NCBI GenBank assembly: GCA_027475525.1
Contig: JAMWFC010000051.1
Span: 3,146,616-3,210,615 of the forward strand
Reading direction: 5' to 3'
Origin: Macrolepiota albuminosa
Taxonomy: Eukaryota; Basidiomycota; Agaricomycetes; Agaricales; Agaricaceae
DNA: 64,000 bases
The first letter of the stretch is position 1. Every line of letters begins with the position of its first letter. Position numbers and translations under genes: made by a program. The notes under the pieces were generated by a model that saw nothing but the letters and a program-made list of their open reading frames with translations, made no database searches and had not been told where the DNA came from. Shown in pieces: positions 12,414 through 37,441 of this stretch.

Positions 12414-13366
12414 TGATGACGCCCAAAGTTTGGTCAGTAACAAATGTAACTATTGTGTTACCGTACCAAGAGTGTGCGTTGGGCGCGCTAAAAGTAATTT
12501 GAGGAGTCCCGGGCAGGTCCCAGAGAACGCGTCGGTGAAAAAGGTGAAAAGTCGGTAACGGGTGTCGGCAAGTGTAAGCGCTAAGGTAAAGCGCCTAGGA
12601 AGAAGCGGTAAGTTAACACGGCAAAGGTGAGCGGCAAGAGCACGATAAGCTTAGCGAAGTTCTAAGCGTCGATAATGCCTGCCGTAGTTGCAAGGCGCGA
12701 ATGTGTCGAAAGTTGGCGAGCGTCTGCGACTGCCGATGAGTTTTGACGTTGCCGACCGTAGCGTGAATGAGCTCTTGATCGTAAGGGAGACTGAGGAAAG
12801 GGGAGTAAACTGTGGTCTATTGTTCTGATGTCTTCTATGTACAAATCGGTAAGTACTTTTATACTACAATGAGTTCGCCGTCGCCAGTGGCTAATGACGC
12901 CAGAGTGCGGTAAACTGGAAAATTTCAAAGGGGTAGCTCCAACGGTTTCAGATCCCTACCGTCCATTCAAGAGCCTTAGCGACGCCAGGCGACAGATCGC
13001 GAAGCTAAACCATCACTCCATCACCCTTCTGTCCGTCAGAGCACCTAAGCGATGTCGGGCGCCAAATCGAGACGCTAAGCGGTGTCAGACGCCAAGGTCA
13101 AACGCCAAGCTGTCCGTCAGTTTTTGATAGATCATCAGGCTTCTCGCTAAGCGCTGTCGTCAGTGACTGATGCCATCTGTCAGTTGTCATTCTGTCTGCC
13201 GATCGGCGCTATCATTGATTGGATCTGCTTCTTGCCGTGCGCGGCCGTCAGAAGTGGCTTAAAATAGGTAAAACGCGTGCGCTAAGTTCGGAACGAGTGC
13301 GGCAAGGTTTCCGGAGCCGGTGCCGAGCCTGCCGTTGATGCGCCTAACCTGTATAGGGTCCTATCA
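12414..13366 (-). repeat. 3' LTR of the gypsy element (953 bp)
   Basis: Starts TGATGACGCCC and ends GGGTCCTATCA on the plus strand, giving short TGAT/ATCA inverted ends. No difference from the copy at 22997-23949 was noticed in a by-eye comparison. It contains 22 copies of CGSYAA/TTRSCG. Confidence 0.95.
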
Positions 13367-13379
13367 TCTCCCCCCAACT
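13367..13379 (-). promoter_or_regulatory. Polypurine tract of the gypsy element
   Basis: On the element's sense strand the bases before the 3' LTR read AGTTGGGGGGAGA, a purine-rich primer site for plus-strand DNA synthesis, directly abutting TGATAGG. Its position confirms that the passenger gene lies inside the element. Confidence 0.85.
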
Positions 13380-13535
13380 GAAAAATTGACTGTCCTCAGT
13401 CACCAAATAAGGCTACCGTTACCGCTTTTGTGACAGGTGGTCCGTGCGTTCTTGAAATTTTGTTTATAGTCCTGGCGCGTGAATTTGGACTTCGTTTCTT
13501 CTCCCCATCTTTTTCTGGCGCTCAACAATAAAAAT

Positions 13536-15773
13536 ATGTCCTTCCGTATTCCAACTCCGCCCCCCGTCCCATCTCAAGCTGCTCAAGAAGCCGCATACGC
13601 CTACATCGCCAAGGCAAACCGTTTCATTCGGCATATTGAGGGCGTTGGCGCCGAGGCGTCTCAAAACTTGGTGGTTGGCGTGATGAAGTTGCTGGAAAGG
13701 TGGTATGAGGTGAGGGTCCTTGGCGTCGGGTGGGATCGCGAAATCGAGGTGCGGGAGTGGTGCCGCGCCCGGTATGTCGATAATCGTGGCGCTGAGTGGT
13801 TGGCGCCTTTCTCCCGCTTTGTAAGTTGTTGTTTTTGCCTGGCGTGTCGCTAAGCTGATTGCTCTCTAGGCGCCTCCCCCTGTCCCCACCATCGAAGATG
13901 AGCTGGAGGACATCCTTTCTGGCGCGTTGCCGATGACCGTAAGCGCATTGGCAACCGAGTGAGTATCTCCTGACCTTTCCTTCCTTAGCTATGGACTGAA
14001 CTATCCCCTCGTAGCAAACAAGAGGTGCTGGAACCCCTTGCTCGCTTGCAGATCGAGCAAGAGCAGGAGGAGGCTGCCGCTGCCGCTGCCGCGCACTCCT
14101 TGGCGGTGGCAAGGGCAGAGCTCGCCAAGGAGCAGAAGAAGGAGTCCGTTGCCGAGGGTTCCAGCAAGGGGTCTCGCGCCGGCAGTGTTCAGAGCCCCAC
14201 ACTGCCGGCAGGCACACAGGGTTCGCCTTCAAAGCCTGGAAAGGCTTTGAAGAAAAAGGTAAGTCTGCTGTCGTTGGCGCTTCTTCTTACCGGTGGTAAC
14301 TGTCGCTAGTCTCGCAAGGGGAAGGGTCCTCAATACGAGGTACGCCGTCGTGACACTTTGCCGACCTTCTACTGACTCTCTCCCAGCTCCCTAGTCAGAC
14401 TACTTTCGACGACAAGGAGTTGAAGGGTCTGCTCTTGCCGCGCCGGGAAGATGTAGTGATGGACGAGGGCATCGAGGGAGGAGTGGAGATTCCCGAGATG
14501 AAGAACAAGCGCACGGTTTCCCTGGCGACGCGCCAGGAGTTCAAAGATTCGCGTGGAGCGGTAAGTTGTCTTAGCCTTTTTGTATGATTTTTGTTCTCAA
14601 GCAAAGTAGTGTGACAAATGTTGGGCCGATAACGACCCAGAAAGTTGCTGGTTCCCCACTGGCGCCCAACCCTGTTACCGCTGCGGCACTCTCAAGCGTG
14701 CTTGCACAATTGACGGCGCCAAGAGTCGTGAGCGTGGTGGGGCGCCTGATGCCTTTGTCGAGAAGACCTTTTCCCGGGCGGTTTTGGTCAAGCGGGCTAG
14801 GGAGTTTGTCGAGGGGGAACGTAGGGAGGTTGCCGCTGGGAGAGCGGCGAAGATCAGCAAGTCCTCCTTGGCGCTGCCGACGCGCCAAGGAGATGAATCG
14901 GAATCGGTCGGACAACGCGGCGCTGGCGAGCGCCAAGAAAAGCGCAAGGCCTCCTCCCCAAGCAAGGGCAAGGGTAAGGCCAAGCGCGTACGTATCGAGT
15001 CGCCCTCCCCCTCTCCAATTGCTGAGGACACGGAGATGAGGGAGCTTGGAGAAGCTCTTGCCGCCAGCCGCCTTCCTCCCGTTAGCGGTGAGGCTGGCCC
15101 CAGCCGCCTACTGTCCCCTCTCTCTTTGCCTGAGGACGCGCCACACGATGTTTCGACTGCTGGCGCCCCAGGAGATGAGGGTGACGTGGTAATGGGGGAG
15201 CCCGCTGGCGCACAGGAGTTGGCCGGGGAGGAGGAGAAAAGGGAAGGGTCGCCAAGCCGCGAGGAGGAAGAGGGCGGCAATGAGGATGCTGAGGGGGAGT
15301 TGGAGGAGACTTTGCGGGACGGTCCTGGCGAGTCCCAGGAGTTGCCGACGGTGGAGCCTGCCGCCCCCTGGGTAAGTGAAGGCGACTTGGCGACACAGCT
15401 CTGGACGAGCTCGAGTGGGCCCTCGTCGTGGACCCCCCAGCCTCAGCCACGAGTCACTGGCGACTCTTACGAGTGGCTGGGGGAGGACTTGGTGTATCCC
15501 GTGGTGGCCCTTTACCCGCCTCAGGTTATAGAGCGGCTGGGGGTTCGTGCGGCAAGCATGCGTGCGGTTTTGGGTCGCGAGCGCGAACGCGTTCGTCAAC
15601 AGATCATGGCTTCCCGACTTCGGTACTCAAACTTGACCCGAAGCATGGAGACCCTGGAGGAATACCAAGCCGACTGCAACGAGGCGCTAGAGTGGCAAGT
15701 CCTCAATCAGGTCCAGGTTGGCGACCTTCTGCCATTCGACGACTCCTTGCCGCTTTCCGATCGTGAAGACTGA
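13536..15773 (+). CDS. Passenger gene in gypsy element: Zn2Cys6-like, acidic, coiled-coil protein (661 aa)
   Basis: Six exons: 13536-13820, 13870-13958, 14015-14258, 14310-14339, 14387-14560 and 14610-15773, totalling 1986 nt in one continuous frame with GT..AG introns. Residues 1-95 hold a small putative domain (MSFRIPTPP...; EVREWCRARYVDNRGAEW). Exon 3 is Glu/Ala-rich coiled coil then Lys-rich (KKK). Exon 6 opens with C-D-K-C and continues C-W-F-P...C-Y-R-C-G-T-L-K-R-A-C, a C-x2-C-x8-C-x8-C-x2-C-x6-C cluster close to the fungal Zn2Cys6 type but with a longer first loop. Then come a basic patch (GKGKAKRVRI), a long acidic Ser/Glu stretch and a C-terminal helical region (VLGRERERVRQQIM). A DNA-binding regulator is the inference. 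It is transcribed against gag-pol. The broken gene at 2611-4615 is a relative with the same pre-cysteine intron. Confidence 0.75.
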
Positions 15774-16196
15774 CGGACCTTAGGGTAGATAGGCCGTCGT
15801 GTATTTAGTTTTTGTTTTGTACGCGTAAATATATTTCTTGCCGCCTTCTTGCCGAGTGGAAGGACAAGTCCCATAATTTGAGTTAGCGCAGCCGCAGAGA
15901 GCAAGGAAAGTATAGCAAAGAGAAAGCAAGCGGTAAGTATTCTGAGGTAGGTATTAGCAAGAGGAGTAGTAGGTGAGGGACTTAGACAAATTTTTGAGAA
16001 AAGGGGAACGCTCAGTAAATCATCATGGCGAAAAACCCCTGGCGAGAGTTGCGCAATGCGCTAAGCGTTGGCGACACGCTAGCGCTGCGGCTTGACTATG
16101 TAAGAAAATGTCTGTTGAATATAGTATAGTAAGTATCGGCAAGCAAGATAAGTAAAGTAAGTAATAGAAAAAGGAGCTTATCAATAATATTCTTTT
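15774..16196. other. Spacer between passenger gene and pol in the gypsy element
   Basis: Convergent 3' ends meet here: the passenger gene stops at 15771-15773 (+) and pol stops at 16197 (-). No further gene is seen. It carries about seven CGSYAA/TTRSCG hexamers, for example at 15838, 15883 and 16058. Confidence 0.6.
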
Positions 16197-19100
16197 CTAA
16201 TCGTTTTCTTCTTCTTCAACTAAAGTCGGCAAGTCATCATCGTCCAATAGTTCGGTTTCCTCAAGTTCTCTTAACTTGGCGGTGTCGATATCTAGCGCTT
16301 CAAGCGGCAAGTCAATGTGTTCTCTAGCGAGGTACGGTAATAGGCGAAAGGCGGCAACAGGTCGGTGTAGGACTGAACCATCTAATTCACAGAGCACGTA
16401 AGCGCCTCCACGGTTAATAGGCGAAAGGCGGCAACAGGTCGGTGTAGGACTGAACCATCTAATTCACAGAGCACGTAAGCGCCTCCACGGTTACGGGAGA
16501 TAACTACCAAAGGTCCAAGATAGCGCGGGCGCATTTTCTTGTTGTAAGAGGTTTCGATTTTGGAGTTGCGCATAAGCACTAGCGCGCCTCTCGGGAAGTT
16601 GTAATCCTTGATAGTGGCGCTATGGTCGGTCTCGAATCGCAGGGCTGCTTGGCGACGTGCGCTAAAGACTACCTCGTGGAGTCGCTCTAAATCTTCTTTC
16701 CTTCGCTGGAGATCAATAGCTTGTCTGGCGATAAGATCGGTAGTCGCTAAGATGCTGTTGGGTCTAAATCTTCTTTCCTTCGCTGGAGATCAATAGCTTG
16801 TCTGGCGATAAGATCGGTAGTCGCTAAGATGCTGTTGGGAGCTGGCTGAAGGTAGGTCGCTTCTATGATGTCGGCAGGGAGTAAAGGATGGGTGCCAGTA
16901 GCCGCGTAATAGAGAGAGCAACCCATGCGCTTACGAATAGTAACTCTTTCCGACCAGAACACTGAATAGGTCGCTTCGCTCCAACGAGACTCGTCGCCAT
17001 CGACTGCCTTGAAGAGTGCTTGCCGAACGTCAAAGTGGGGTCTCTCTACCAGGCCATTGGCGCGCTTGTTGTAGCCAGATACTCGAATGTGGTGAATGTT
17101 GTATTTCTTGGCGAGGTATGTTAGCGCTTTGATGATGGGCGCACCGTTATCCGTGACGATTTCTCTTAGCGCTCCCCAACGGCAAATGACGTCCTCAAAT
17201 AGCCACTTGGCGACCGCGTTGGTATTTTCCCTCTGAAGCATTCGAAATTCCGGCCAGTGGATTAGCGAGCAGCAACCTTGAATGATGTACTTGTAGCGAC
17301 CAGATTTGGGCATGTGCATGGTATCGACGTAGATTTTGCTGAAGAGGGGAGCTGGCGTTGCAACGGTTGGCGGGATGAGCACTTGGCGTGTTTGTTGAAT
17401 TTGGCAGAGGTGGCAAGTCCTGATGTACCAGGCGATGTCGGCACTAGCGTGTGGCCACCAGAATCGTTCTAACAGAGAGGCTCGGGTAGCGTACAGACCT
17501 CTATGTCCTAGCTCGTCATGCATAGCGCGCAAGACTCGTAAGCGACTTTCTGGTTTGATGATCAGCTTGTGAGCGCCGTCTCGATTACGTCGCCAAAGTC
17601 GGTTGTCGGTAAAGAAGAAGTGGGTAGCATAGCGGATAAAGGTAGCGTATTGTTCGTCGGTAAGGTCTGGGGGTCGCTTAAGGTCTTGTAGCCATTGTTC
17701 AACTATTAGCAAGCGACTGTCCTCTGCTTTTGCTTGGTAAGACCTGGGGGTTGCTTAAGGTCTTGTAGCCATTGTTCAACTATTAGCAAGCGACTGTCCT
17801 CTGCTTTTGCCTTGGCGGATCGGGGGACGGCATCGTAGGTCAGGTTTCTGCTGTCTTCTCTTAGCGACTGGGGTTCCTGTACGACTTTTAGGCGGATCGG
17901 GGGACGGCATCGTAGGTCAGGTTTCTGCTGTCTTCTCTTAGCGACTGGGGTTCCTGTACGACTTTTATTGGTGACGAGTCTTGACTGAAAATGCTTGCCG
18001 TGTAGAAGGTGAGGGGTGCGCTAAAGGTCTCGGGGCGGTAAGGGACAATGGGATGTAGAAGGATGCTGGTAGGCTGTTGCCGTCGTAATAGGGTAATTGG
18101 CTGTTGTATGAGGTGCACGAAACCATGTAAGCGGTCGATCCAGTCCTCGAAATCGCTATCAGCCTGAGGGTCCACTGCCGGGTCGCCAGGCTGCCGTGGT
18201 CGCCTAGAGAGTCCATCTGGGCCGTGGAAAGTGCTCTTGACGTGTACCAGCTCAAAGTGAAACATGAGGATAGCGACTACCCACCGGTTCATGCTAGCGG
18301 ATGGCTGGATATCGGGATTCTGCAGCATGCCTTTAATGTACCTAGCGTCGACTTCAACAATAAGGTTCCGCACGCCAATCAAATACATCTTTAGCAACCG
18401 GAAGGCTTTGAAGAGTCCATAGAGCTCTAGCTTAGGCTGACTGTAGCGAGACTCTCTGTCGTTTAGCGTGATAGACCCAAAGCGGTTGTAGCGTCGCTGT
18501 TTTCGATTGTCGCTAAGGCATTGGCACAAGAAGTAGCCAACGGCAATGTACGAGGTGTCCACCGCCAAGATAACAGGGTCGGCAGAGGTATAATCGATGG
18601 GGACTAGGGGCTTGGCGTCCTGCAGAGCTTTTACCAAGTCTCGTTGAGCGGTAACCTGGTCTGGCCCAAATTCGAAGGGCTCGTTAGCGCGGGTGAGTCG
18701 GTTAAGGGCATGTGCGCGATGGGCAAAGTTCTTAACGAATATCCTAAGAACGCCAACGGTGCCAAGAAAGGCGCGAACTTCAGATAAGTCGCGGCAAGGA
18801 CCCCAGCGCTCCAAGAGTGCTAAGCGAGATTCGTCGGGAACACGACCGTCAGGAGTGCAGATGTGACCAAGTATTTTGAACCTTGGCGCGCAAAGGAGAA
18901 GTTTGTGACCGCTAAACGTACCACCGCTATACTTCATACGCTGGAGAACTCGATTGAGCAGCTGGAAAAAGTCCCATAGCGCTAAGCGAATGTTGGAGTT
19001 GTCGAGATGGGTTGCCGGTAAGCCGTTTACGAGTCGCCAGTCTTTGGGGCCTTTGACGCCAACGTCGTCGATGAAGCTAAGGACGTTATGCGGTATCTCG

Positions 19101-20254
19101 GGTTGGAGGATGAAAGTGATGTCGTCGTGGAATATAGGGACTGAGTTTGTCCAGCCCATCGGCAAGGTGACTAGGCGCAGTGCGCCAAACGGAGTTTGAA
19201 AGGTGGTGAGGTCACGGGAAGAGGGGTGGATTAAGCGTTCGTCGTAGCCGACGTAAAGGTCAAGGGTGGCGCCACAAATGCGCCCGGCAAAGGACTCGGC
19301 AACGTGATCAGGGAAAGGCGGTACGCCAGAGTGTCGTATTGTAACTCTATTCAGCGGCTCAAGACTGTGAACTATGCGTAGATTGCCGTTCTTCTTGAGG
19401 ACGCAGAACCAACGGGAGCGGTAAGAACTATTAGAGGGCTCATAGACGCCAGCCTGTATCTTGGTCCTAATGATTTGGCAGACCTCGGCTTCGATCCCAG
19501 GCGGTAACGGTCGGTTGTGCTCAGTCCACGGCACGTGAGGGATAGTCAGGATGACGACAGGCGGGAAGAAATCTGTGCGGAGGCTGCCGCGTTCTGAGTC
19601 CTCCCAAGCAAAAGCTTTGTCTTGCTTAGCGACGAGATCGGTAAGGACATTCAACTCATCTTTGGTCAAAAATCCTGTGTCGTGCTCCTTGGCGAACTGC
19701 TGCTGGCGTTCTGCGGTAAAACGTCCTGTGGGCTGAAAGGGTGGTGGATTCGGTGATAAGGTCGGCATGTCGGCAAGAGGGTCGCCAATGATCTGGCGTT
19801 CGATCCTAAACGTCTCGGGAGAGTGCGTAGCGACCGGTTTTGTCTTAAGCGCAACTGGCTTATATTTCTTTTTAACTTGAACCCCTTTCCTTTTGGGAGC
19901 GTTAGCTTGGTTATACACAGATGTGGAAAGGGGAACTGTAGCCTGAGGTGCGGCAAGTCCAAGAACGGCAGGAGACGAGGCTCCGGGAAGGGTAGTGAGA
20001 TACGTATCGGTAGACGCAATATTTTGAAATGATTCTGAAGCGGTAAGATATAAGTACGCTAGAGCTGAGTCGGTAATATCTGGGTTTTTCTGAGAAAGCT
20101 CAGCGTCGGTAACGGTAGAGGAAAGCAAAACTTCATCGTCAAGACAAGCGGTAGATATAATATTTACAAGACCAGTTGAATGGTCATATTCCAGCGTTAG
20201 CGCTACATCTCCGTGATCGTCGCCAATCACCTCCTCGATGGTCTGTGAAAACAC
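16197..20254 (-). CDS. Gypsy pol: reverse transcriptase, RNase H, integrase
   Basis: Minus-strand pieces 17888-20254, 16747-17712, 16382-16579 and 16197-16397 together form pol. RT motifs include FCVLKKNGNLRIVHSLEPLN, TPFGALRLVTLPMGWTN and the catalytic SFIDDVGVKG. RNase H begins at VILAVDTSYIAVGYFL. The integrase has a zinc HHCC region (HDELGHRG...TCHLCQ) and the DDE residues in YVDTMHMP, IVTDNGAP and GLVERPHFD. The C-terminal GPY/F-like module reads PRYLGPLVVISRNRGG. The tail is acidic (LLDDDDLPTLVEEEEND). The pieces are separated only by 77-bp tandem duplications (dups 3-6). Subtracting 77 bp for each puts all four in the same frame, so the true gene is probably one intact ORF. It is in the -1 frame relative to gag-protease and overlaps its end. 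Confidence 0.88.
16338..16493. repeat. 77-bp period tandem duplication (dup 3) in pol 3' end
   Basis: 16338-16416 matches 16415-16493, a period of exactly 77 bp with a 2-bp chance overlap. It splits the region after the integrase GPY/F-like module and causes a frameshift. Confidence 0.95.
16686..16840. repeat. 77-bp period tandem duplication (dup 4) in integrase
   Basis: The sequence from 16686 recurs from 16763, period 77 bp, truncating the integrase frame at 16747. Confidence 0.95.
17659..17812. repeat. 77-bp period tandem duplication (dup 5), three mismatches near its start
   Basis: 17659-17735 and 17736-17812 share period 77 bp but differ at a few bases (GGTAAGGTCTGGGGGTCGCTT against GGTAAGACCTGGGGGTTGCTT). 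It is the only one of the seven that is not exact, which fits the joining of two slightly different element copies. Confidence 0.9.
17814..17967. repeat. 77-bp period tandem duplication (dup 6) at the RNase H-integrase junction
   Basis: 17814-17890 recurs at 17891-17967. It truncates the RT/RNase H frame at 17888. Together with dup 5 it accounts for the break between the two largest pol pieces. Confidence 0.95.
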
Positions 20255-20369
20255 CGGTGTGGAGGCTCGTTGGCGTGTTGGTCGGTAAATTCATCGTCGC
20301 CAATCACCTCCTCGATGGTCTGTGAAAACACCGGTGTGGAGGCTCGTTGGCGTGTTGGTCGGTAAATTC
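20216..20369. repeat. 77-bp period tandem duplication (dup 7) at the gag-pol junction
   Basis: 20216-20292 and 20293-20369 are duplicates with period 77 bp. After removing one copy, gag-protease and pol overlap by a short stretch and stay in different frames (-1), so a real frameshift junction lies underneath the artefact. Confidence 0.95.
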
Positions 20370-22616
20370 CGGGGGCTTAGCGCGGGCGCCTTTTCGTTGT
20401 CCCCTAGGGAACGTTGGCACCGTTCGTCGGATTCCGGAGTTGGGGTCGCTAATTGTGAGGGTCGTTTCCTCGTCGGTAACTGTCTTGACGACTGATCGCG
20501 CCAAGACGTCGAAGGGTCTGCCAAGTAGTAGGTCGTAAGCTGGTGAACGTAAGATGTGGATCTGAAGATAAAACGTGATGTCGCCAAGGGTGCACGGCAC
20601 ATTCTTGGCGAGGCCTAGGGATCTGTCTACCGTTCCGTTAGCGCTCTGCATGTTTAGTATAACGGTAGGGTCGTAAATAAGGCCCAGGTCATTAGCGACT
20701 TCTGCTGCCATAGAAATAATCTGAGACCCGCTATCCACGATTGCCTCTACTTCGTGCTTGTTGTCTACGGTTAGCGCTACCGAGCGGATAGCGTGCGATT
20801 CTTGAGCGACGGTAAGAATGGCGGGGTCCTCTCCATGGTCTACAGACCTAAGGTAGGTCTCTACTGGGTCCACCGAGGTGGCGTTAGCGATGGAGTCGGC
20901 TGGAGAATCTTCAGCGTCGGGAGAGTCGATGGTAACAGAGAAACCAGGAAGCGCGTCGTCGAGTTCATCAACCTTGGCAACGGCTGTCGCCAAGGGTCGT
21001 CGAGGAGTGACTGCCGTCTTGACTTGGTTGCGGACGTCGGGAGCAATACTACAAAGCTCTTCTACTGATAAGGTAACATTGGTTTTCATGATGCGGTTAA
21101 AGACGTGGTTGGATTTCTCGATATCGAATATTGGCGCAGTAGGTCGGTAGCCACCCTCAGGACGTTTCTCGGGAGCGGCAAAGTTTCGTTGTGCGGGAGC
21201 ATGATAACGATCGGGAATCCCTGAATAGGGATGGAGAGGCGGCAAAGGCGGTTCGGGAGCGGTAGCGGACGACGATGGTTCTGAAGCAGGAGCAGGGGCA
21301 GTGGCAGGAGGTGCGGCAGGAGCAGGTGTCGGTAACTTGCTAGCGGGAGGCATTGGCTTATATCCTTTAAGAGGTTGTTTGGGCTGCTTAACTTCAACCC
21401 CATCAAAGACCTGGTTCTTTAGCGAATCTAATTCCTGCTGCAGCTTGGCGATACGCTCTTCCCGCGAGAAAGTAGGGTGGTCGCCAACGCTGTCGAAATG
21501 TAGGACCTCGTGAATCATCTGCTGTTGGGTCGCCTGTTCGGGGTCGGGGTTGGCATTGCCAGATAGCGTGCCGGTAACAATTTGTCCTGGGTTGCGCCTA
21601 TGCCATTCATCTACCCGCTCCTGGAAGGACTTCTTGTCGGGGTAGTTGGGGATGGTGGCGCCAGAGGTAAGAACTATCTTGCCGTCGATAGCCCTTCGAA
21701 TTCTACCTTGGCGAACGTAATTCTCGAGGGTAGCGCAGCGTCCTCTAGTCATGGTATGGCCAATTTCCCCACAGAAGTGGCAAGGGCCAGGTGCGGGTAC
21801 GTTAGCGGGTCGGTTAGCCGTGAGGTTGGTGGTGATCATGGTTTCAATACGCGTCATAGCGGAAGCGACAGCGGCGGTAATCGCAGCATTGAGCTCCTCC
21901 TTCTTAACGAAGTCGGCAGCGGGAGGCGGGATGGGAATGATACCGTTAGTTCGCTCAGGTGGTGGGCTCGTCCTAGCGCGCTGCAGTCCAACGCCAGTGT
22001 CCGTTCCTTTGAGAACCCATTTACCGGCTTCAAAGACGTCGGCAACGTTATAGGGCTCGTCAGGGTGATGGGCCTGGTGAACTATTTCTAGGCGACGAGC
22101 AATACGAGTCCAAAGCGAAGTCGGGATGCCTTGCTGGAACAGGCGACGCTCCTCGTTAATATAGAGCTTGCCGTTCTGCAGAAGCCACCTAGCGATTTTC
22201 TGGAACTCGCGGTAATACGTGGAGAATGCGCCAAGCGACGATGTGCCACTGTCGAAAGATTCCTGAACTAGTTTCTGGAGCTCGTTTACCGTGTATCGGG
22301 TAGCCTCCTCGGCGCCAGGATACAGCTGGATTACTGCCGTCTTCCAGTCCTCATACGAAGCGCCTTGGGCTGGAGCTGGCGGGGCGGCAGGGACAAAGAC
22401 TGCAAACTCGGTAAGACCTGTCCACGTCTCTGCCGTGTCATACGATACGTATCTTGCCGCGTACTCCTTCATCTGCGTGTGGTCGGTAATGTTACAATCT
22501 CTGAATAGATACTCCAACTCCTTAAAATACTGGGAGAGCTCCCGTGGCTTGGTCTCGTCCCATTTCGGTGCTGAGAAGTGGTTGCGTGGCGGCATGCGCT
22601 GGACTTGTTGTTCCAT
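20304..22616 (-). CDS. Gypsy gag-protease polyprotein (770 aa)
   Basis: ATG at 22616 (MEQQVQRMPPRNHFSAPKWD) opens a capsid-like region (PRELSQYFKELEYLF; GLTEFAVFVPAAP), typical of gypsy Gag with the retrotransposon-gag fold. Around residues 280-300 is a zinc knuckle, CHFCGEIGHTMTRGRC (C-x2-C-x4-H-x6-C here, slightly longer than CCHC). A Pro/Ala-rich linker follows. Near residue 630 is a pepsin-like retroviral protease, AIVDSGSQIISM with the active Asp in DSG and a later LLLGRPF flap/core. The frame ends at 20304 within dup 7. Gag packages element RNA; the protease matures the polyprotein. Confidence 0.9.
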   Translation of the reverse strand: MEQQVQRMPPRNHFSAPKWDETKPRELSQYFKELEYLFRDCNITDHTQMKEYAARYVSYDTAETWTGLTEFAVFVPAAPPAPAQGASYEDWKTAVIQLYPGAEEATRYTVNELQKLVQESFDSGTSSLGAFSTYYREFQKIARWLLQNGKLYINEERRLFQQGIPTSLWTRIARRLEIVHQAHHPDEPYNVADVFEAGKWVLKGTDTGVGLQRARTSPPPERTNGIIPIPPPAADFVKKEELNAAITAAVASAMTRIETMITTNLTANRPANVPAPGPCHFCGEIGHTMTRGRCATLENYVRQGRIRRAIDGKIVLTSGATIPNYPDKKSFQERVDEWHRRNPGQIVTGTLSGNANPDPEQATQQQMIHEVLHFDSVGDHPTFSREERIAKLQQELDSLKNQVFDGVEVKQPKQPLKGYKPMPPASKLPTPAPAAPPATAPAPASEPSSSATAPEPPLPPLHPYSGIPDRYHAPAQRNFAAPEKRPEGGYRPTAPIFDIEKSNHVFNRIMKTNVTLSVEELCSIAPDVRNQVKTAVTPRRPLATAVAKVDELDDALPGFSVTIDSPDAEDSPADSIANATSVDPVETYLRSVDHGEDPAILTVAQESHAIRSVALTVDNKHEVEAIVDSGSQIISMAAEVANDLGLIYDPTVILNMQSANGTVDRSLGLAKNVPCTLGDITFYLQIHILRSPAYDLLLGRPFDVLARSVVKTVTDEETTLTISDPNSGIRRTVPTFPRGQRKGARAKPPEFTDQHANEPPHRCFHRPSRR

Positions 22617-22996
22617 GGCGACGGTGGTAACGAGTTCGGTTAGCGGTAGTGGGGAAGGAGTTCTGGAGATTGGCGACGGGGTAAGCGAAATGAGTTGAGA
22701 AAGAGGCGTTAGCGGAGTAATGGGAGTGATTGACTGTGGTACGGTAAAGGGCGACGCTAAGGGGTCGTCGGCACTATAATCGAGGGAATGCGGGAAGAGA
22801 TCAGGAAAGGCGTCTACAGTGGCGTTCTGTAGTTCCTGGGCTAGAGAGAGACCCGGTAAGGCACCAGGTGGTTGTGGAGTTGATGGGTGGGAAGGAGCTA
22901 TGCCTTCTGCCGACTGGTCTAGCAGGCGGCGCCTACGTTGGAGACGGGTTTCTGGCGGAATTCTGCCCTAGAGATCCCTCGCGGTGGGCTCCAATT
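22617..22996 (-). other. Gypsy leader between 5' LTR and gag
   Basis: An untranslated leader of about 380 bases on the sense strand, Pro/Ser-rich if read through. It carries several CGSYAA/TTRSCG hexamers. No upstream ATG-led gene is supported. Confidence 0.6.
22977..22993 (-). promoter_or_regulatory. Putative primer-binding site of the gypsy element
   Basis: Three bases after the sense-strand LTR end, the sequence reads TGGAGCCCACCGCGAGG. It begins with TGG as expected for pairing to a tRNA CCA end. I could not assign the tRNA. Confidence 0.5.
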
Positions 22997-23949
22997 TGAT
23001 GACGCCCAAAGTTTGGTCAGTAACAAATGTAACTATTGTGTTACCGTACCAAGAGTGTGCGTTGGGCGCGCTAAAAGTAATTTGAGGAGTCCCGGGCAGG
23101 TCCCAGAGAACGCGTCGGTGAAAAAGGTGAAAAGTCGGTAACGGGTGTCGGCAAGTGTAAGCGCTAAGGTAAAGCGCCTAGGAAGAAGCGGTAAGTTAAC
23201 ACGGCAAAGGTGAGCGGCAAGAGCACGATAAGCTTAGCGAAGTTCTAAGCGTCGATAATGCCTGCCGTAGTTGCAAGGCGCGAATGTGTCGAAAGTTGGC
23301 GAGCGTCTGCGACTGCCGATGAGTTTTGACGTTGCCGACCGTAGCGTGAATGAGCTCTTGATCGTAAGGGAGACTGAGGAAAGGGGAGTAAACTGTGGTC
23401 TATTGTTCTGATGTCTTCTATGTACAAATCGGTAAGTACTTTTATACTACAATGAGTTCGCCGTCGCCAGTGGCTAATGACGCCAGAGTGCGGTAAACTG
23501 GAAAATTTCAAAGGGGTAGCTCCAACGGTTTCAGATCCCTACCGTCCATTCAAGAGCCTTAGCGACGCCAGGCGACAGATCGCGAAGCTAAACCATCACT
23601 CCATCACCCTTCTGTCCGTCAGAGCACCTAAGCGATGTCGGGCGCCAAATCGAGACGCTAAGCGGTGTCAGACGCCAAGGTCAAACGCCAAGCTGTCCGT
23701 CAGTTTTTGATAGATCATCAGGCTTCTCGCTAAGCGCTGTCGTCAGTGACTGATGCCATCTGTCAGTTGTCATTCTGTCTGCCGATCGGCGCTATCATTG
23801 ATTGGATCTGCTTCTTGCCGTGCGCGGCCGTCAGAAGTGGCTTAAAATAGGTAAAACGCGTGCGCTAAGTTCGGAACGAGTGCGGCAAGGTTTCCGGAGC
23901 CGGTGCCGAGCCTGCCGTTGATGCGCCTAACCTGTATAGGGTCCTATCA
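22997..23949 (-). repeat. 5' LTR of the gypsy element (953 bp)
   Basis: Apparently identical copy of 12414-13366; on the sense strand it begins TGATAGGACCC and ends GGGCGTCATCA. It is followed on the plus strand by ACGG, the target duplication. The ORFs inside it are LTR shadows, not genes. Confidence 0.95.
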
Positions 23950-24126
23950 ACGGCTAGTACAGTTGACTATGAGCTTATGCATACGCTTTCAATATCTATT
24001 CCCTAGTCGTACTTTTCTTGCGCACCCTCCTACCTCTCCTTCGTTATCCTTTTCTTGGACTCTGTTTTTTGACAAATCTTCTTTCTTGTTCTCATTATTC
24101 TAGTACATAGTGTACATACAAAGTGC

Positions 24127-24869: not shown

Positions 24870-27530
24870 TCATATATCAATATGTTTGGCTCGTGAATGT
24901 CCGACCGGGTTGTTGGAAAGGGCGATGCTTCCAGCGCTATCTGTATAGATCGTGGTTGCCGTTGCCTGCTCAAAATCGAGGTCGTTTAATAGGCATCGCA
25001 GCCAAATCACCTCTCTGGTGGCATTTGCGGATGCGATATATTCCGCTTCGACTGTTGACGTTGCTACCCCTAGTTGCTTTTTCAAGGACCAAGAGACAAT
25101 ACTGCCATTGAGCTCATAGCACCATCCGCTGATTGATTTTCGGTCGTAATGGTCTTGTGCCCAATTGGCGTCGCTCCATCCAATAAGTTTTAACTCGTTG
25201 TTTAGTTGTCCTCCCAACATCAGACCATAGGATTTAGTCCCTTTGAGATATCGGAGTATTCGTTTGCATGCAGTCAAATGGGCTATGCCTGGATTATTAG
25301 CAAACTGAGCTACCAGACTTACTGCAAACTGAATATCTGGACGAGTTTGGATAGCGTAGAGAAGCGATCCGACCATCGATAAGTAATTGACTCCGTTTGC
25401 GAACTTGTTGTAGGAATCAACCTCTCCTGGAGTTTTGGGAGACTGCAACAGCGAAAGATTGTGATTCGTTGCCAGGGGAGTCGCCATTTCGTGACAATCC
25501 TTCATTCCGAAGCGATCTAAAATGGATTCGACATATGCGGACTGATCAAGTCGAATGATTCGTCTTTCCCTGTCTCGACTAATCTGTAGTCCTAACATAT
25601 AGTATATTTTGCCAAGGTCGGTTATGTCAAAATGTTTATTCATGTCATTTTTAAATGAGATAATTCGAGCGAGACGTTCCCCGGCAACAGCCATATCATC
25701 AACATAGACTAAAACGATGAGTACAATCTTTCCATGAGAACGCAGAATATACAAGCAGTCGTCTGCTTTGGATTGGCTGAAACCGAGGCACATGAGCACA
25801 TCATGTAATCGTTCCTTCCATTTGCGGCCAGCTTGTTTGAGCCCGTATATCGCTTTGCGCAACTTCCAGTATCGTGCTTTTCCGATTCCGTTAGGAGCTC
25901 TCATGTAGATCTCTTCGTCTATATTGGCCTCAAGGTACGCTCCAACCACGTCTATTTGATGTACTTCAAGGTCTAGCATGGCCGCCAGAGTGAGGAACAC
26001 CCGCAGAGTAGTGAATTTTGCGACCAATGAAAACGTGTCGTGATAATCGATTTCAGGTACCTGGGAGAAACCCTGAGCTACGATTCGGGCTTTATACTTG
26101 ATTCGATTTCCTTGGCCATCGAGTTTTTCTTTCAAGACAACTTTACTTCCCACGGCTCTTTTACCGGGAGGTAATTCGTTTACTTCCTCAAATACATTCT
26201 TTTTGACTAATTGGTTGTATTCGTCTTGAATGGCTTGCTGCCATCTATCTGTGTCGCGCGTTTGCATGGCCTCGTGAACAGGCGGTCCTGATACTGCCAC
26301 GTATGCTGCATGAACTTCAGGATTTTCATCATCGTTATCTCGGTACCTCATCGGAATACGTCGAGACCTGGTGGAAACTTCACATTTTGGCAAGTTCTCC
26401 CACCTGGCCTTCTTCCTTGGAGCGGCAGGAGTTACAGTGTCAGTGGGGTCCTGCTCAGGAGTACGAGGTCGAGAGGGAGATGGATACTGAAGCTCACCAC
26501 CGCTGATTTCTCCTTCTGAGGCACTGGCATATGCATCGTCTCCTTCTGTTAGTTGACTAAGATCGGATAGGTGAATGGATACGCGAATTTTTCGAGGTAC
26601 GTCTTCTTCAGGATATGGAGCAAGGTCGATGAGGTCATCAACAGGCCTATTAATTTCTCCATCGGAAGTGGGTTTCACTTGTGCCAATTCACTAGGTACG
26701 TTGTCTTCATGGAATTGAACATCACAGGAAGTGATCAGCTTTCCGTTTTCGAGGTCCTCCAGTCTGTAACCTTTAGTTTCTCCCGCCCACCATCCAAGCA
26801 TTCGTACTCGTACTGCACGCGACTCAAGCTTGCCGCGCCTTACTTCTTTGGGCACATGAGCCCATCCAAGTGAGCCAAAGATACGAAGGTGCGACAAGTC
26901 AGGTTTTTCATGGGAGTTACTCCATTCTGTAAACGGTATTTTGCCACCAAGGGCTGACGTTGGAGTGATAGAACGAATGTAAGTGGCATACATGAAGGCC
27001 TCGCCCCAGTATCTCAAATCCATGTTTGCAGCGTGGAGCATACATCTCGTCATCTCCATTAAAACGGCTATCGTTCGCTCAGCTATTCCATTCTGCTCAG
27101 GTCTGTAGGGATTGGTAGTTTCATGAGTTATTCCATTAAGCTTACAAAACCTTTCTACAGTCGAATTCACGAATTCGGTGCCGTTATCGGTTTGAATTAT
27201 TTTGACTAGCTGCCCCGACTGACGTTTGAGCTTTGCAACAGTACCGCGCATTTTGTCGGCTGTCTCCTCTTTCTTCTCGAGCAGAGAACTGTTTGGCAGA
27301 CGACGACTGACTTCAACGATCACTAGGGCATACCGTTTTCCATCCCATGTGGGTACATTCATAGGTCCAATCAAGTCCATGACAAGCAACTCGTTTTTGT
27401 CATAGATCTTTGTGCTGGCTGCCGGCAGAGGGGGTCTAGTGGATTTTCCTTGAATACACCCACTGCACAGGCGATCGAACTCGCGAGGCAATTTGATCTT
27501 TAATCCTGTTACGATGTTCGTATCTGCCAT
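24870..27530 (-). CDS. Copia pol: integrase, reverse transcriptase, RNase H (ends at premature TGA)
   Basis: Same frame as gag, separated from it by one TGA. Integrase zinc residues CSGCIQGKSTRPPL are followed by the DDE triad in VMDLIGPMN, IQTDNGTEF and RPEQNGIAER. RT shows YKARIVAQGFSQVPEIDYHD, IYGLKQAGRKWKERL and the catalytic YVDDM. RNase H shows GWSDANWAQDHYDRKSISGW and AEYIASANATREVIWLR, ending SRAKHIDI before TGA at 24870. Beyond that TGA the frame stays open into the LTR with the usual copia C-terminal sequence, so this stop is a recent mutation of an Arg codon position. The product would lack only the last few dozen residues. Confidence 0.93.
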   Translation of the reverse strand: MADTNIVTGLKIKLPREFDRLCSGCIQGKSTRPPLPAASTKIYDKNELLVMDLIGPMNVPTWDGKRYALVIVEVSRRLPNSSLLEKKEETADKMRGTVAKLKRQSGQLVKIIQTDNGTEFVNSTVERFCKLNGITHETTNPYRPEQNGIAERTIAVLMEMTRCMLHAANMDLRYWGEAFMYATYIRSITPTSALGGKIPFTEWSNSHEKPDLSHLRIFGSLGWAHVPKEVRRGKLESRAVRVRMLGWWAGETKGYRLEDLENGKLITSCDVQFHEDNVPSELAQVKPTSDGEINRPVDDLIDLAPYPEEDVPRKIRVSIHLSDLSQLTEGDDAYASASEGEISGGELQYPSPSRPRTPEQDPTDTVTPAAPRKKARWENLPKCEVSTRSRRIPMRYRDNDDENPEVHAAYVAVSGPPVHEAMQTRDTDRWQQAIQDEYNQLVKKNVFEEVNELPPGKRAVGSKVVLKEKLDGQGNRIKYKARIVAQGFSQVPEIDYHDTFSLVAKFTTLRVFLTLAAMLDLEVHQIDVVGAYLEANIDEEIYMRAPNGIGKARYWKLRKAIYGLKQAGRKWKERLHDVLMCLGFSQSKADDCLYILRSHGKIVLIVLVYVDDMAVAGERLARIISFKNDMNKHFDITDLGKIYYMLGLQISRDRERRIIRLDQSAYVESILDRFGMKDCHEMATPLATNHNLSLLQSPKTPGEVDSYNKFANGVNYLSMVGSLLYAIQTRPDIQFAVSLVAQFANNPGIAHLTACKRILRYLKGTKSYGLMLGGQLNNELKLIGWSDANWAQDHYDRKSISGWCYELNGSIVSWSLKKQLGVATSTVEAEYIASANATREVIWLRCLLNDLDFEQATATTIYTDSAGSIALSNNPVGHSRAKHIDI

Positions 27531-34840: not shown

Positions 34841-37441
34841 ATGCGCCTTTCCGACGAGCTGCGAGTCTGGTATATTGAGTTCGCATCCACCGACGCATTC
34901 CAGCAGATCGTGCCCCTCGTCGTCCTCGTGCTCATCCCCACTATCGTCTTCCTCATTGCCACAAATCTCGGCGCCCTCTTTGTCGACCTCAGGATGGGCC
35001 TCGACTCGTATCTCCCATGGAACTGGGCTGCGGGTGGCTCTGTGTCCTCTAGAGAATCTACAAGGAGCACCGAAAAGAAGAAATCACGCAAAGCTGTGCG
35101 TACTAGAGCGGAACAGATACCAATGAATGGCATTTCTAGCCATTGTGCGTCTGGTTTTCCTGTCTACACCAAGCTTATGTTCAAACTGTAGTGCTACAGC
35201 TTCCGAGACTGGCTCAGACGACGGCTACTATCCCGGGCTGGTGAATATATCTGGCACTTATTGTTTCATGAATTCAACTCTACAAGTTGGTTTGCCTCAT
35301 TACTATATACGTCACTATTTTTTACCATTTGTTATAGGCATTGGCCTCTTTATCCTACCTCCAACCCCATATCGACACAATACATGCCAAGGCTGAATTC
35401 TTGGACGTACCCACACCAGTAATTGATGCCCTGCAAAAACTTTTCCGACGTAAACCACTCGAACATCTTTCTTGGCACTGCCTTACTCATGATACTTTGT
35501 AGGATTGAACGAACCGAAAGCATCATACCATTCTATACGGCCAATAGAGCTTATCGAAGTCCTCAGCAGACAAAACGAGGGTCGCCCAGGCTCACTATTC
35601 AATTCGCGGGAACACCAGGACGCGCAAGAGCTCTTCCAGTTGCTCTCGGAATGCATCAAGAATGAGATTGCTGCAGTTGATAAGGAGGGCTACCGAGATA
35701 GAGGTCTGGGAGGTCTCTCGCAGGTGTCAGAGGCAACCAAGGAGATTGGGAAGAGTGTCTTTGACGGGCTCACTGCGAATCGTCGGAGTTGTGTGGTCTG
35801 CGGATACACCGAGGCCGTAATGCACTTTGCCTTGGACAATTGGCAGCTCGCCGTTCCGAGGCTATCAGTGAGTTCGGCCCGCTTCTCAAAATCTATTGAC
35901 TCACAACCATGTACAGGCTAGCTGCCGCCTTGAGGACTGTCTAGAAGAGTACACGACGCTCGAGATACTCAGGGATTGCATATGTCGAAAATGCTCTCTA
36001 ATCGCCACACACAAAAGGCTTCTCAGCGACCTGCACACGCTGGAAGAAGCTACTCGTCCTGAAGCAAGTCCGTCCCCATCCAAGAAGAGGCGGCTAAAGG
36101 AAGTGAAAAGAATGGAGAAGCGCGTTCAAACGGCGTTGGAAGAAGGCCGAATAGAGGACAACCTACATGACGTCCGCATAGAAAAAGTCTTCAGCAAAGC
36201 CTCGACCAAGCAAGCCATGATAGCTCGAGTGTGTGCCTCTCATAACTTCCTCTTCTCTTCTTCTATTAACAATCGCCATCCAGCCACCACAAGTCCTAGC
36301 GCTACACATAAACCGTTCCGTCCACTACGGCCAATACGCCGCAAAAAACACCGTCCGTGTGATCTTCCCCGAAGTCCTCGACCTAACACCCTACACGACT
36401 TCAGGAAGCCTCTCGATCATTCCCACCTCCGCCATCTCAACCCCCCCACCGCCCATACGCCGCTCAACAACGCCCACGCCTGCAACTTACGCCCACCCAC
36501 GGACACTCTACCGCCTCTCCGCCGTAGTGTGCCACTACGGACAACATTCATTCGGCCACTACATCTGCTACCGCCGCCGCCCACGGAGCGCCGACCTCCC
36601 GCCCCAAAAACGCTGGGCGCCTCCGCGCCTCGTCGACCCGCTGCACTCCGCCGACGACGCCGTCGAACGGCGCTACATCTGGGAAACCGAAGACGGAGAG
36701 CGCGAGCCCCCTGCTCGAACCGGGCACGGCTGGCTGCGGATAAGCGACGATGCGGTACGGGAATGCGGGATTGAGGCGGTGTTAGCGGAGGGCGCGGGGG
36801 CGTTTATGCTTTATTATGAGAGGGTGGTGATTGTGCAGCCTGCTGGCACGATCTATGCGAATGGCGAGGAGGGGAATGTGTCGGAGGAGACGTTGAAGCC
36901 TGAGATGAGGGCTGTGGATCTGAATGGGAGCGTGGGGTCTTTGATCACGGAGGTAGGGATTGGTGTTCGGATTGGGTCAGAGGTGCCGGTGACGAATGGG
37001 ACCGCGAGTGTGGTGGTCGTGGGCTCGGTGCCTGAACCGAGGATCGTGAGGAGTGTGGCGGCGGGGAGGAAGAGGAGCTCGAGTGTTGTGCCTTCAGATC
37101 GGGAGTTGAGTGCAATGTCGGCGGTGAAGGCTGCGAAGGCGCCACCGTTAATGAACGGCGAGGTTCACGCGGTTGGGAATGGGAGTGCCACAACGAAAGT
37201 TTCTGCGCCATCGTTACTCTCCCTCCAGAAGCCTTTACCATCATTACCACCATCACCCGTTGTTCCCTCTGCCCCGCTTCCGACTACACCTACTACACCT
37301 ACACCCTCGCCAAAGTCCGCTCCAGTGCCAAAAGCAACTCCATCATCGAAACACCCAAAACCGTCACCTAACCGGAGAGACGCTCCGACTTCACACAAAG
37401 CGATCCCGATTCCTTCGCCAGTCGTCGATCTCAAAGCATAG
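34841..37441 (+). CDS. UBP1: Membrane-anchored ubiquitin-specific protease (UBP1/USP family C19)
   Basis: ATG 34841; about six exons. The N-terminus has a transmembrane helix (IVPLVVLVLIPTIVFLIATN, residues about 23-42), as in yeast Ubp1. The Cys box reads GLVNISGTYCFMNSTLQ, joined by an intron (35287-35338) to ALASLSYLQPH. Further USP segments are NSREHQDAQELFQLLSECIK, a Cys-x2-Cys pair (RRSCVVCGY; CICRKCSLIATHKR) and the His box SAVVCHYGQHSFGHYICYRR. GWLRISDDAVRECGIEAVL supplies the last part of the fold and FMLYYER the conserved end. The C-terminus is a long Pro/Ser-rich tail. It removes ubiquitin from substrates, probably at an internal membrane. The catalytic Cys and His are present. Confidence 0.85.

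What the first reader, a model, noticed from the sequence alone, without database searches (positions are those of the whole stretch)
12414..23949. Gypsy retrotransposon saturated with CGSYAA/TTRSCG hexamers
By hand I counted 22 hexamers of the set CGCTAA, CGGTAA, CGGCAA, CGCCAA (either strand) in the 953-bp LTR, 12 in 18361-18960 (pol), 8 in 21001-21600 (gag) and 8 in 14641-15240 (passenger gene). Uniform expectation is about 1 per 512 bp, and a host gene control (35941-36540) had none. All four variants are used about equally in the LTR (7, 5, 6, 4), so the degenerate consensus itself seems selected, even through coding sequence in several frames. This is not explained by codon use or by known retroelement signals and looks like a dispersed recognition site.
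Basis: seen in the sequence. Interest (0 to 1): 0.9.

Follow-up and report, generated by a model that had tools for sequence, protein, structure and literature searches.

The report
Retrotransposons carrying their own recognition code
A jumping element in a fungus is packed, genes included, with a short DNA word kept by selection, and a sister element carrying a changed version of the same extra protein is packed with a different word, which suggests that each element's protein recognises its own DNA.

Summary
CGSYAA tops an unbiased degenerate-hexamer scan of the element (169 sites vs 23.9 expected). The enrichment stops at the LTR edges and is not codon use: synonymous shuffles give 7-9 in gag or pol against 35-40 observed. 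Sites are held by selection: ten diverged copies keep 369 sites where neutral simulation gives 168.
The element is a Gypsy LTR retrotransposon. Between pol and the 3' LTR it has a six-exon antisense gene for a 661-aa protein with a conserved six-cysteine cluster under strong purifying selection.
The key result is a sister Gypsy family in the same genome (pol 77-84% aa identical). It carries a homologous antisense gene with a changed cluster (28 of 44 residues identical), has little or no CGSYAA enrichment, and is enriched for RGCGCY/GCGCYW instead.
Best reading: each family's protein binds its own dispersed word on double-stranded DNA, a self-recognition system that works like VANDAL/VANC anti-silencing of Arabidopsis, but in a fungal retrotransposon with an unrelated protein. 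Binding and anti-silencing are inferred, not shown.

The parts
12414..23949 (-). Gypsy LTR retrotransposon (gag-pol on minus strand), CGSYAA-saturated from edge to edge
   Evidence: 191 sites; density change at both edges; LTR pair; 13-23 sites per kb in each part
12414..13366 (-). 3' LTR (TG...CA), 953 bp, 22 CGSYAA
   Evidence: identical to the other LTR at 953 of 953 positions
22997..23949 (-). 5' LTR, 953 bp, 22 CGSYAA
12410..12413 (.). target-site duplication ACGG (left copy)
   Evidence: ACGG on both sides
23950..23953 (.). target-site duplication ACGG (right copy)
22976..22993 (-). candidate primer binding site TGGAGCCC..., three bases after the 5' LTR
   Evidence: read from sequence; tRNA not matched
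13367..13375 (-). polypurine tract GGGGGGAGA next to the 3' LTR
   Evidence: read from sequence
20304..22616 (-). gag with aspartyl protease; 35 CGSYAA vs 8.8 in synonymous shuffles
   Evidence: PF13975 33.4 bits, cutoff 28.2
17888..20254 (-). pol: reverse transcriptase-RNase H; 40 CGSYAA vs 7.2
   Evidence: PF17917 45.5 bits, cutoff 24.8
16747..17712 (-). integrase part of pol (frame broken near the 77-bp duplications); 14 CGSYAA vs 2.7
   Evidence: (PF17921 60.2 bits, cutoff 25.5)
13536..13820 (+). passenger gene exon 1 (antisense to gag-pol)
   Evidence: GT-AG splice model giving one open 661-aa frame; no RNA evidence
13870..13958 (+). passenger exon 2
14015..14258 (+). passenger exon 3
14310..14339 (+). 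passenger exon 4
14387..14560 (+). passenger exon 5; its donor in the model is itself a CGGTAA site at 14559
14610..15773 (+). passenger exon 6 (cysteine cluster, basic tail, low-confidence middle, C-terminal long helix)
14610..14741 (+). putative DNA-binding C6 cluster C-x2-C-x8-C-x8-C-x2-C-x6-C plus basic tail
   Evidence: amino-acid change rare while synonymous sites change much

Best explanation
This is a fungal Gypsy retrotransposon with a built-in self-recognition system. An intron-bearing gene between pol and the 3' LTR, antisense to gag-pol, makes a six-cysteine-cluster protein with a C-terminal coiled coil. The protein (inferred) binds the short word CGSYAR on double-stranded DNA, which selection has written about every 60 bp along LTRs, gag, pol and its own gene, so that it coats or marks copies of its own family. 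The likeliest use (inferred) is to keep chromatin of its own copies open or unmethylated, as VANC proteins do for VANDAL transposons. A sister family has the same gene with a changed cluster and has replaced the word by RGCGCY/GCGCYW. Shown: the words, their selection, the gene (as a splice model), the parallel difference of protein and word. Inferred: binding, and anti-silencing as purpose.
For: CGSYAA is the best degenerate hexamer of the element, z 29.6, against Markov and synonymous controls, with sharp LTR edges. Density is maintained in diverged copies: 17 blocks of 10 loci below 84% identity, 376 sites in the window, 369 in the copies, 168 expected neutrally, max 194 of 200 runs (one search gave 409, 403 and 184 with one copy counted twice). 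Below 72% identity 9 of 20 sites are unchanged against 2 of 23 and 24 of 177 control hexamers; at 72-78% 92 of 170 against 45 of 203 and 307 of 1247. Both strands are used and CGGTAA(G), a 5' splice-site consensus (recalled), is avoided only on the gag-pol sense strand (CGGTAA 2 sense, 22 antisense; GGTAAG 0 and 10; CGCTAA 16 and 6; Fisher p 1e-5), which fits a word read in DNA and constrained in RNA. The passenger evolves with dN/dS 0-0.23 in 39 comparisons, cluster dN at most 0.07. Sister family L071 pol: CGSYAA 5 vs 5.1 shuffled, RGCGCY 15 vs 3.9, GCGCYW 27 vs 8.6; window pol RGCGCY 4 vs 4.2. In the L071 alignment 0 of 29 window sites are still CGSYAA (controls 32 of 180), in all four sister alignments 3 of 92 site comparisons, whereas within the family 10 of 20 to 109 of 170 sites stay in class at similar identity, there mostly in passenger and LTR sequence. 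Homologous passenger in the same place and orientation, linked to pol in 15 of 19 hand-picked elements.
Against: No binding, expression or methylation data. Only two families, hence one switch of word, could be read; sister DNA in hand is about 12 kb from three elements (L071 with L075, L072, L074). L074 has the sister word but no passenger was seen near it in the capped list. CGSYAA is mildly high in two sister pieces (L074 7 vs 2.7, L075 integrase 8 vs 3.4) and RGCGCY in one window-family piece (L073 5 vs 2.1). In the sister the word thins out in the spacer-passenger half (0-3 per 500 bp against 3-6) and its passenger exon alone shows 3 vs 1.0 (27 of 400 shuffles reach it). CpG in the element is not depleted (o/e 1.03), so methylation pressure on it is not evident. 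Gypsy families without such a gene were not found and so not tested as controls.
Confidence: 0.6

Rival explanations
1. The passenger protein binds the word but is a transcription activator (like Tat or Tas of retroviruses) or regulator of LTR and antisense promoters, not an anti-silencer.
For: The LTR has the highest density of the parts, 23.1 per kb against 15.3 internally; regulatory roles have been proposed for antisense ORFs of plant elements (passages).
Against: Promoter control does not need sites throughout gag and pol, yet coding regions are saturated against synonymous shuffles and density is held in diverged copies.
Confidence: 0.15
2. The passenger coats the element's DNA for another step: protecting cDNA, nuclear import, pairing of copies, or keeping new insertions out of or guiding them to its own copies.
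For: Needs sites along the whole element, as observed; the long C-terminal helix would allow oligomers.
Against: No test here distinguishes it from anti-silencing; the insertion spectrum was not examined.
Confidence: 0.15
3. A host protein, not the passenger, reads the word, and passenger and word differ together only because they travel together.
For: Only two words for two families; binding is untested; L074 has the word with no passenger seen in the capped list.
Against: A host factor would have to differ for two sister families in one genome; the cluster is the most conserved part of the passenger's last exon in the most diverged copies.
Confidence: 0.08
4. Mutation or composition bias (CpG methylation, RIP-like decay, codon use).
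For: The word contains CpG, and CpG in words mutates less than other CpG (CG kept 0.907 vs 0.778 at 84-97% identity).
Against: Whole-word conservation including the A and S/Y positions; synonymous shuffles; LTRs identical, CpG o/e 1.03; the sister family in the same genome has a different word.
Confidence: 0.02

Closest known systems
VANDAL transposons and VANC anti-silencing proteins of Arabidopsis (Hosaka 2017, PMC5735166; Sasaki 2023, PMC10398659)
   Same: A mobile-element protein and short words accumulated in that element; related families with related proteins and different targets (PMC5735166: abstract, section 5 part 1, sections 9 and 11; PMC10398659: abstract and outline).
   Different: VANDALs are MuDR-type DNA transposons of plants, VANC has DUF1985/DUF287 and targets non-coding, often tandem-repeated stretches; here a fungal LTR retrotransposon, an unrelated C6-cluster protein, and words spread through coding regions as well. 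Binding and hypomethylation were shown there, not here.
Antisense additional ORFs between pol and 3' LTR (Grande gene23, RIRE2, Retand TRP28; Boty brtn)
   Same: Same position and orientation; some predicted to bind DNA; function unknown (passages of PMC7264820 and PMC11963269; brtn seen only as a reference title and in search listings).
   Different: In the passages read no element-wide word or matched change of protein and word is reported; no TRP28 match in this protein.
Zn2Cys6 (Gal4-type) fungal binuclear cluster
   Same: Six cysteines in two C-x2-C halves followed by a basic stretch; CGG-type recognition is recalled for Gal4-type clusters.
   Different: Spacing C-x2-C-x8-C-x8-C-x2-C-x6-C; no PF00172 match.
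Fungal DNA transposons with TET/JBP genes (PMC12730594)
   Same: Fungal elements thought to counteract silencing (passages).
   Different: Enzymes in DNA transposons; that paper notes no retrotransposon with TET.

Membership tests
Ty3/Gypsy LTR retrotransposon | Two LTRs with TG..CA ends and target-site duplication | tested here: met
   953/953 identical LTRs, ACGG duplication
Ty3/Gypsy LTR retrotransposon | gag-protease, RT-RNase H then integrase order | tested here: met
   PF13975, PF17917, PF17921 above cutoffs in that order on the minus strand; the RT domain itself gave no Pfam hit at E 1 in the window but is annotated (PF00078) in some homologs
VANC/VANDAL anti-silencing | VANC domains (DUF1985/DUF287) and MuDR-type transposon | tested here: not met
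   No Pfam match in the passenger; the element is Gypsy
VANC/VANDAL anti-silencing | Short words accumulated in the element, different in related families | tested here: met
   (two families)
VANC/VANDAL anti-silencing | Encoded protein binds the word | not testable with these tools
   needs DAP-seq or EMSA
VANC/VANDAL anti-silencing | Expression removes silent marks from own copies | not testable with these tools
   needs methylome or ChIP
Zn2Cys6 cluster (PF00172) | Match to the family model | tested here: not met
   not listed
Zn2Cys6 cluster (PF00172) | Six cysteines binding two zinc ions | tested here: inconclusive
   Six cysteines present, first half longer than canonical (canonical spacing recalled); model confidence low
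Antisense aORF between pol and 3' LTR | Position and antisense orientation | tested here: met
   window and sister family; 15 of 19 hand-picked elements
Antisense aORF between pol and 3' LTR | Kept in all or most copies of the family | tested here: inconclusive
   many copies carry it, but the lists are capped, so the fraction is unknown

The most novel reading that the evidence does not exclude
Antisense genes of LTR retrotransposons are in general self-recognition systems: each family writes its own short word throughout its sequence, coding regions included, and its protein reads that word to mark self against silencing, with protein and word switching together as families split. The unexplained antisense ORFs of plant elements would then be parallel cases.
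Probability: 0.3. Interest if true: 0.95.

Novelty: new variant of a known kind. Interest (0 to 1): 0.9.

Why it matters
The function of antisense ORFs in LTR retrotransposons is described as unknown in the passages read (PMC7264820, PMC11963269). Here two sister families in one genome differ in protein and saturating word together, which turns that question into a direct binding test and gives natural pairs for reading out how a small cysteine cluster sets DNA specificity. It would carry VANC-like self-recognition to another kingdom, another element class and an unrelated protein, and it indicates that a selfish element can overwrite its own synonymous sites with a recognition code.

Tried and rejected
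Chance and composition: rejected by Markov and synonymous controls. CpG or RIP effects: rejected as main cause. RNA-level word: disfavoured by use of both strands. A Zn2Cys6 label: not supported by Pfam. Structure route: AlphaFold models of the last exon (mean pLDDT 55) and of Termitomyces P0002 (45) do not resolve the cluster; Foldseek on the first gave one match at E 3.9. DNA of relatives outside this genome: a pol alignment found none confirmed in viral or prokaryote contigs. Protein relatives of the passenger came only from Termitomyces (8, 16, each scoring the 7991 candidates sharing most words), while pol gave 1427 relatives, 120 listed. Third family: L073 (C101) and L076 (C115) proved to be the window's family. 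Regular spacing of sites (excess at 13, 30, 45, 48 bp and some others) was not pursued. Searches had counted some genomic places twice (overlapping loci; L061/L062 alike; L067 inside L069); one search repeats them without these and is the one to use; the conclusions stand.

Full report
Check of the observation. The hand counts are exact. The element at 12414-23949 carries 191 CGSYAA words on both strands; the other 52,464 bases carry 72. Over the element with one LTR (10,583 bp) 169 words stand against 23.8, 28.4 and 58.0 in Markov simulations of order 1, 2 and 3, and 141.5 of order 4, which already contains the word's pentamers. The four variants are ranks 1 to 4 of all hexamers there, and a scan of degenerate hexamers with at most two two-fold positions, seeded from the 60 best hexamers, puts CGSYAA first, z 29.6. 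Codon use does not explain it: shuffling synonymous codons gives 8.8 for gag (35 observed), 7.2 for pol (40), 2.7 for integrase (14), 6.3 for the passenger (25), while a neighbouring Copia ORF shows 5 against 4.7. One-mismatch neighbours lie between 0.4 and 1.8 of expectation except CGSYAG, 3.1-fold, so the class is sharply bounded. By part the density is 23.1 per kb in the LTR, 13.4 in the passenger gene, 15.4 in the spacer, 16.0 in gag-pol.

Anatomy. Identical 953-bp LTRs (0 differences) and an ACGG duplication mark a recent Gypsy insertion with gag-pol on the minus strand. Between pol and the 3' LTR a gene runs the other way (13536-15773, plus strand): six exons with GT-AG borders joined into one 661-aa frame (splice model, no RNA evidence). 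Being antisense to the genomic RNA, its introns can survive retrotransposition (inference). The protein has a cluster CDKCWADNDPESCWFPTGAQPCYRCGTLKRAC, a basic tail and a long C-terminal helix, residues 304-365 of the last exon, predicted at high confidence while the cluster is not. It matches no Pfam model above its cutoff.

Selection on the word. A search of the own genome scored 67 of 2637 first-look candidates for the passenger and gave 148 matching stretches. Some copies keep LTR, and where read pol, at 94-98% identity but have passengers at 66-80% (for example L041, L043, L067, L069), so modules recombine. With places counted once, 17 blocks of 10 loci below 84% identity hold 369 words where the window holds 376; substituting the window at the same rates without selection leaves 168 on average, never more than 194 in 200 runs. 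Below 72% identity 9 of 20 sites are unchanged against 2 of 23 permuted controls and 24 of 177 other CG hexamers; at 72-78% 92 of 170 against 45 of 203 and 307 of 1247. At the S position C>G is 11 and C>T 4, G>A 3 and G>C 0; at Y all 21 changes are C<>T (hexamers with at most one mismatch only; loci share ancestry). In 40 distinct last exons 520 words stand against 147.7 in shuffles; in 36 of 40 none of 300 shuffles reaches the observed value. Genome-wide CGSYAAG occurs 68,709 times against 32,699 for the reversed pattern.

Read in DNA, constrained in RNA. Words lie on both strands. CGGTAA(G) doubles as a 5' splice-site consensus (recalled), and inside gag-pol it is almost only antisense: CGGTAA 2 sense and 22 antisense, GGTAAG 0 and 10, whereas CGCTAA is 16 and 6 (Fisher p 1e-5). 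The one plus-strand CGGTAA in the passenger gene is the donor of exon 5 in the splice model.

The passenger is a conserved gene. In 39 comparisons of last exons dN/dS is 0 to 0.23; the 48-residue cluster region has dN of at most 0.07 although its synonymous sites reach saturation in several copies.

Co-variation. Searching the genome with a Rhodonia pol led to a sister Gypsy family: L071, L072, L074, pol 70-72% nucleotide and 77-84% amino-acid identical to the window. Its CGSYAA density is 2.8-4.0 per kb against 16.9 in the window's pol. Its own best word is RGCGCY (z 21.3; this palindrome is counted on both strands) or GCGCYW, 126 vs 28.4. Synonymous shuffles, 400 each: window pol CGSYAA 40 vs 7.4 and RGCGCY 4 vs 4.2; sister L071 pol CGSYAA 5 vs 5.1 and RGCGCY 15 vs 3.9; L072 6 vs 1.4, L074 10 vs 2.3, L075 integrase 14 vs 3.6 for RGCGCY. 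Exceptions to tell: CGSYAA is mildly high in L074 (7 vs 2.7, 8 of 400 shuffles) and L075 integrase (8 vs 3.4, 5 of 400); RGCGCY is mildly high in L073 of the window's family (5 vs 2.1, 16 of 400); and GCGCYA and GCGCYW are high in the window's family, GCGCYAA being a subset of its word. Downstream of the sister's pol, same place and orientation, lies a homologous antisense gene (L075) whose cluster is CDKCWSENDPEGCWFPTASLPCYRCDALKRGC, 28 of 44 residues identical over cluster and tail. The search with it scored 150 of 860 candidates, all 150 matching at 83-100% identity. Pairing by coordinates, 15 of 19 pol hits that I picked by hand from the 36 main hits have such a gene about 5-8 kb downstream in the expected orientation; of the four without, C101 (L073) belongs to the window's family, C88 (L074) has the sister word but no gene in the capped list, C83 and C111 were not read. 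In the L071 alignment 0 of 29 window CGSYAA sites are kept against 32 of 180 controls (p 0.01); over all four sister alignments 3 of 92 comparisons, the same window sites being met more than once, against 68 of 594. Within the window's family 10 of 20 to 109 of 170 sites stay in class at similar identity, there mostly passenger and LTR sequence. So the word was replaced along pol while the pol proteins stayed alike. In the sister the word is thinner in the spacer and passenger half.

Mechanism. Saturation of coding sequence argues for a role along the whole element, such as keeping it free of silencing, more than for promoter control. VANC proteins of Arabidopsis are the precedent: they bind short words of their own transposons and remove methylation, and related families use different targets (PMC5735166, sections named under Closest known systems). 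A 2026 meeting report mentions unpublished VANC-DNA coevolution (PMC12859917, passages), and a 2026 sunflower paper discusses VANC as a model for retrotransposons without such a case (PMC12844716, passages). Antisense ORFs of plant elements share place and orientation with function unknown (PMC7264820, PMC11963269, passages).

Novelty. Literature searches (open-access library only) listed no paper whose title or abstract start reports a retrotransposon saturated with its own word or such a system in fungi; I read listings and the passages named, not all the papers.

Noticed in passing
window 7036, 10276, 16338, 16686, 17814, 20216: Six exact 77-bp tandem duplications, inside and outside the element. 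Overlapping BLAST blocks show the four in-element ones to be single in L069. Looks like k=77 assembly joints; pol and integrase frames break near them.
   Followed up: partly
window 12414-22996 and L041, L043, L044, L052, L061, L065, L069, L005: Excess of CGSYAA pairs at 13, 30, 45 and 48 bp (and 17, 29, 41, 49 in the pooled set) over jittered positions; loci share ancestry; cause unknown.
   Followed up: partly
L041, L043, L063, L067, L069: Mosaic copies: LTR 95-99% identical to the window but much of the passenger region 66-80%, pointing to module exchange.
   Followed up: partly
L042, L064, L003: Copies with lower word density, 7.9-9.3 per kb, possibly older or decayed.
   Followed up: no
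L075:1787-3331: Sister family has extra minus-strand open stretches in the pol-passenger spacer, unidentified.
   Followed up: no
window 24870-27530: Copia-type pol ORF on the minus strand next to the element (read from its protein); used as control, no CGSYAA excess.
   Followed up: partly
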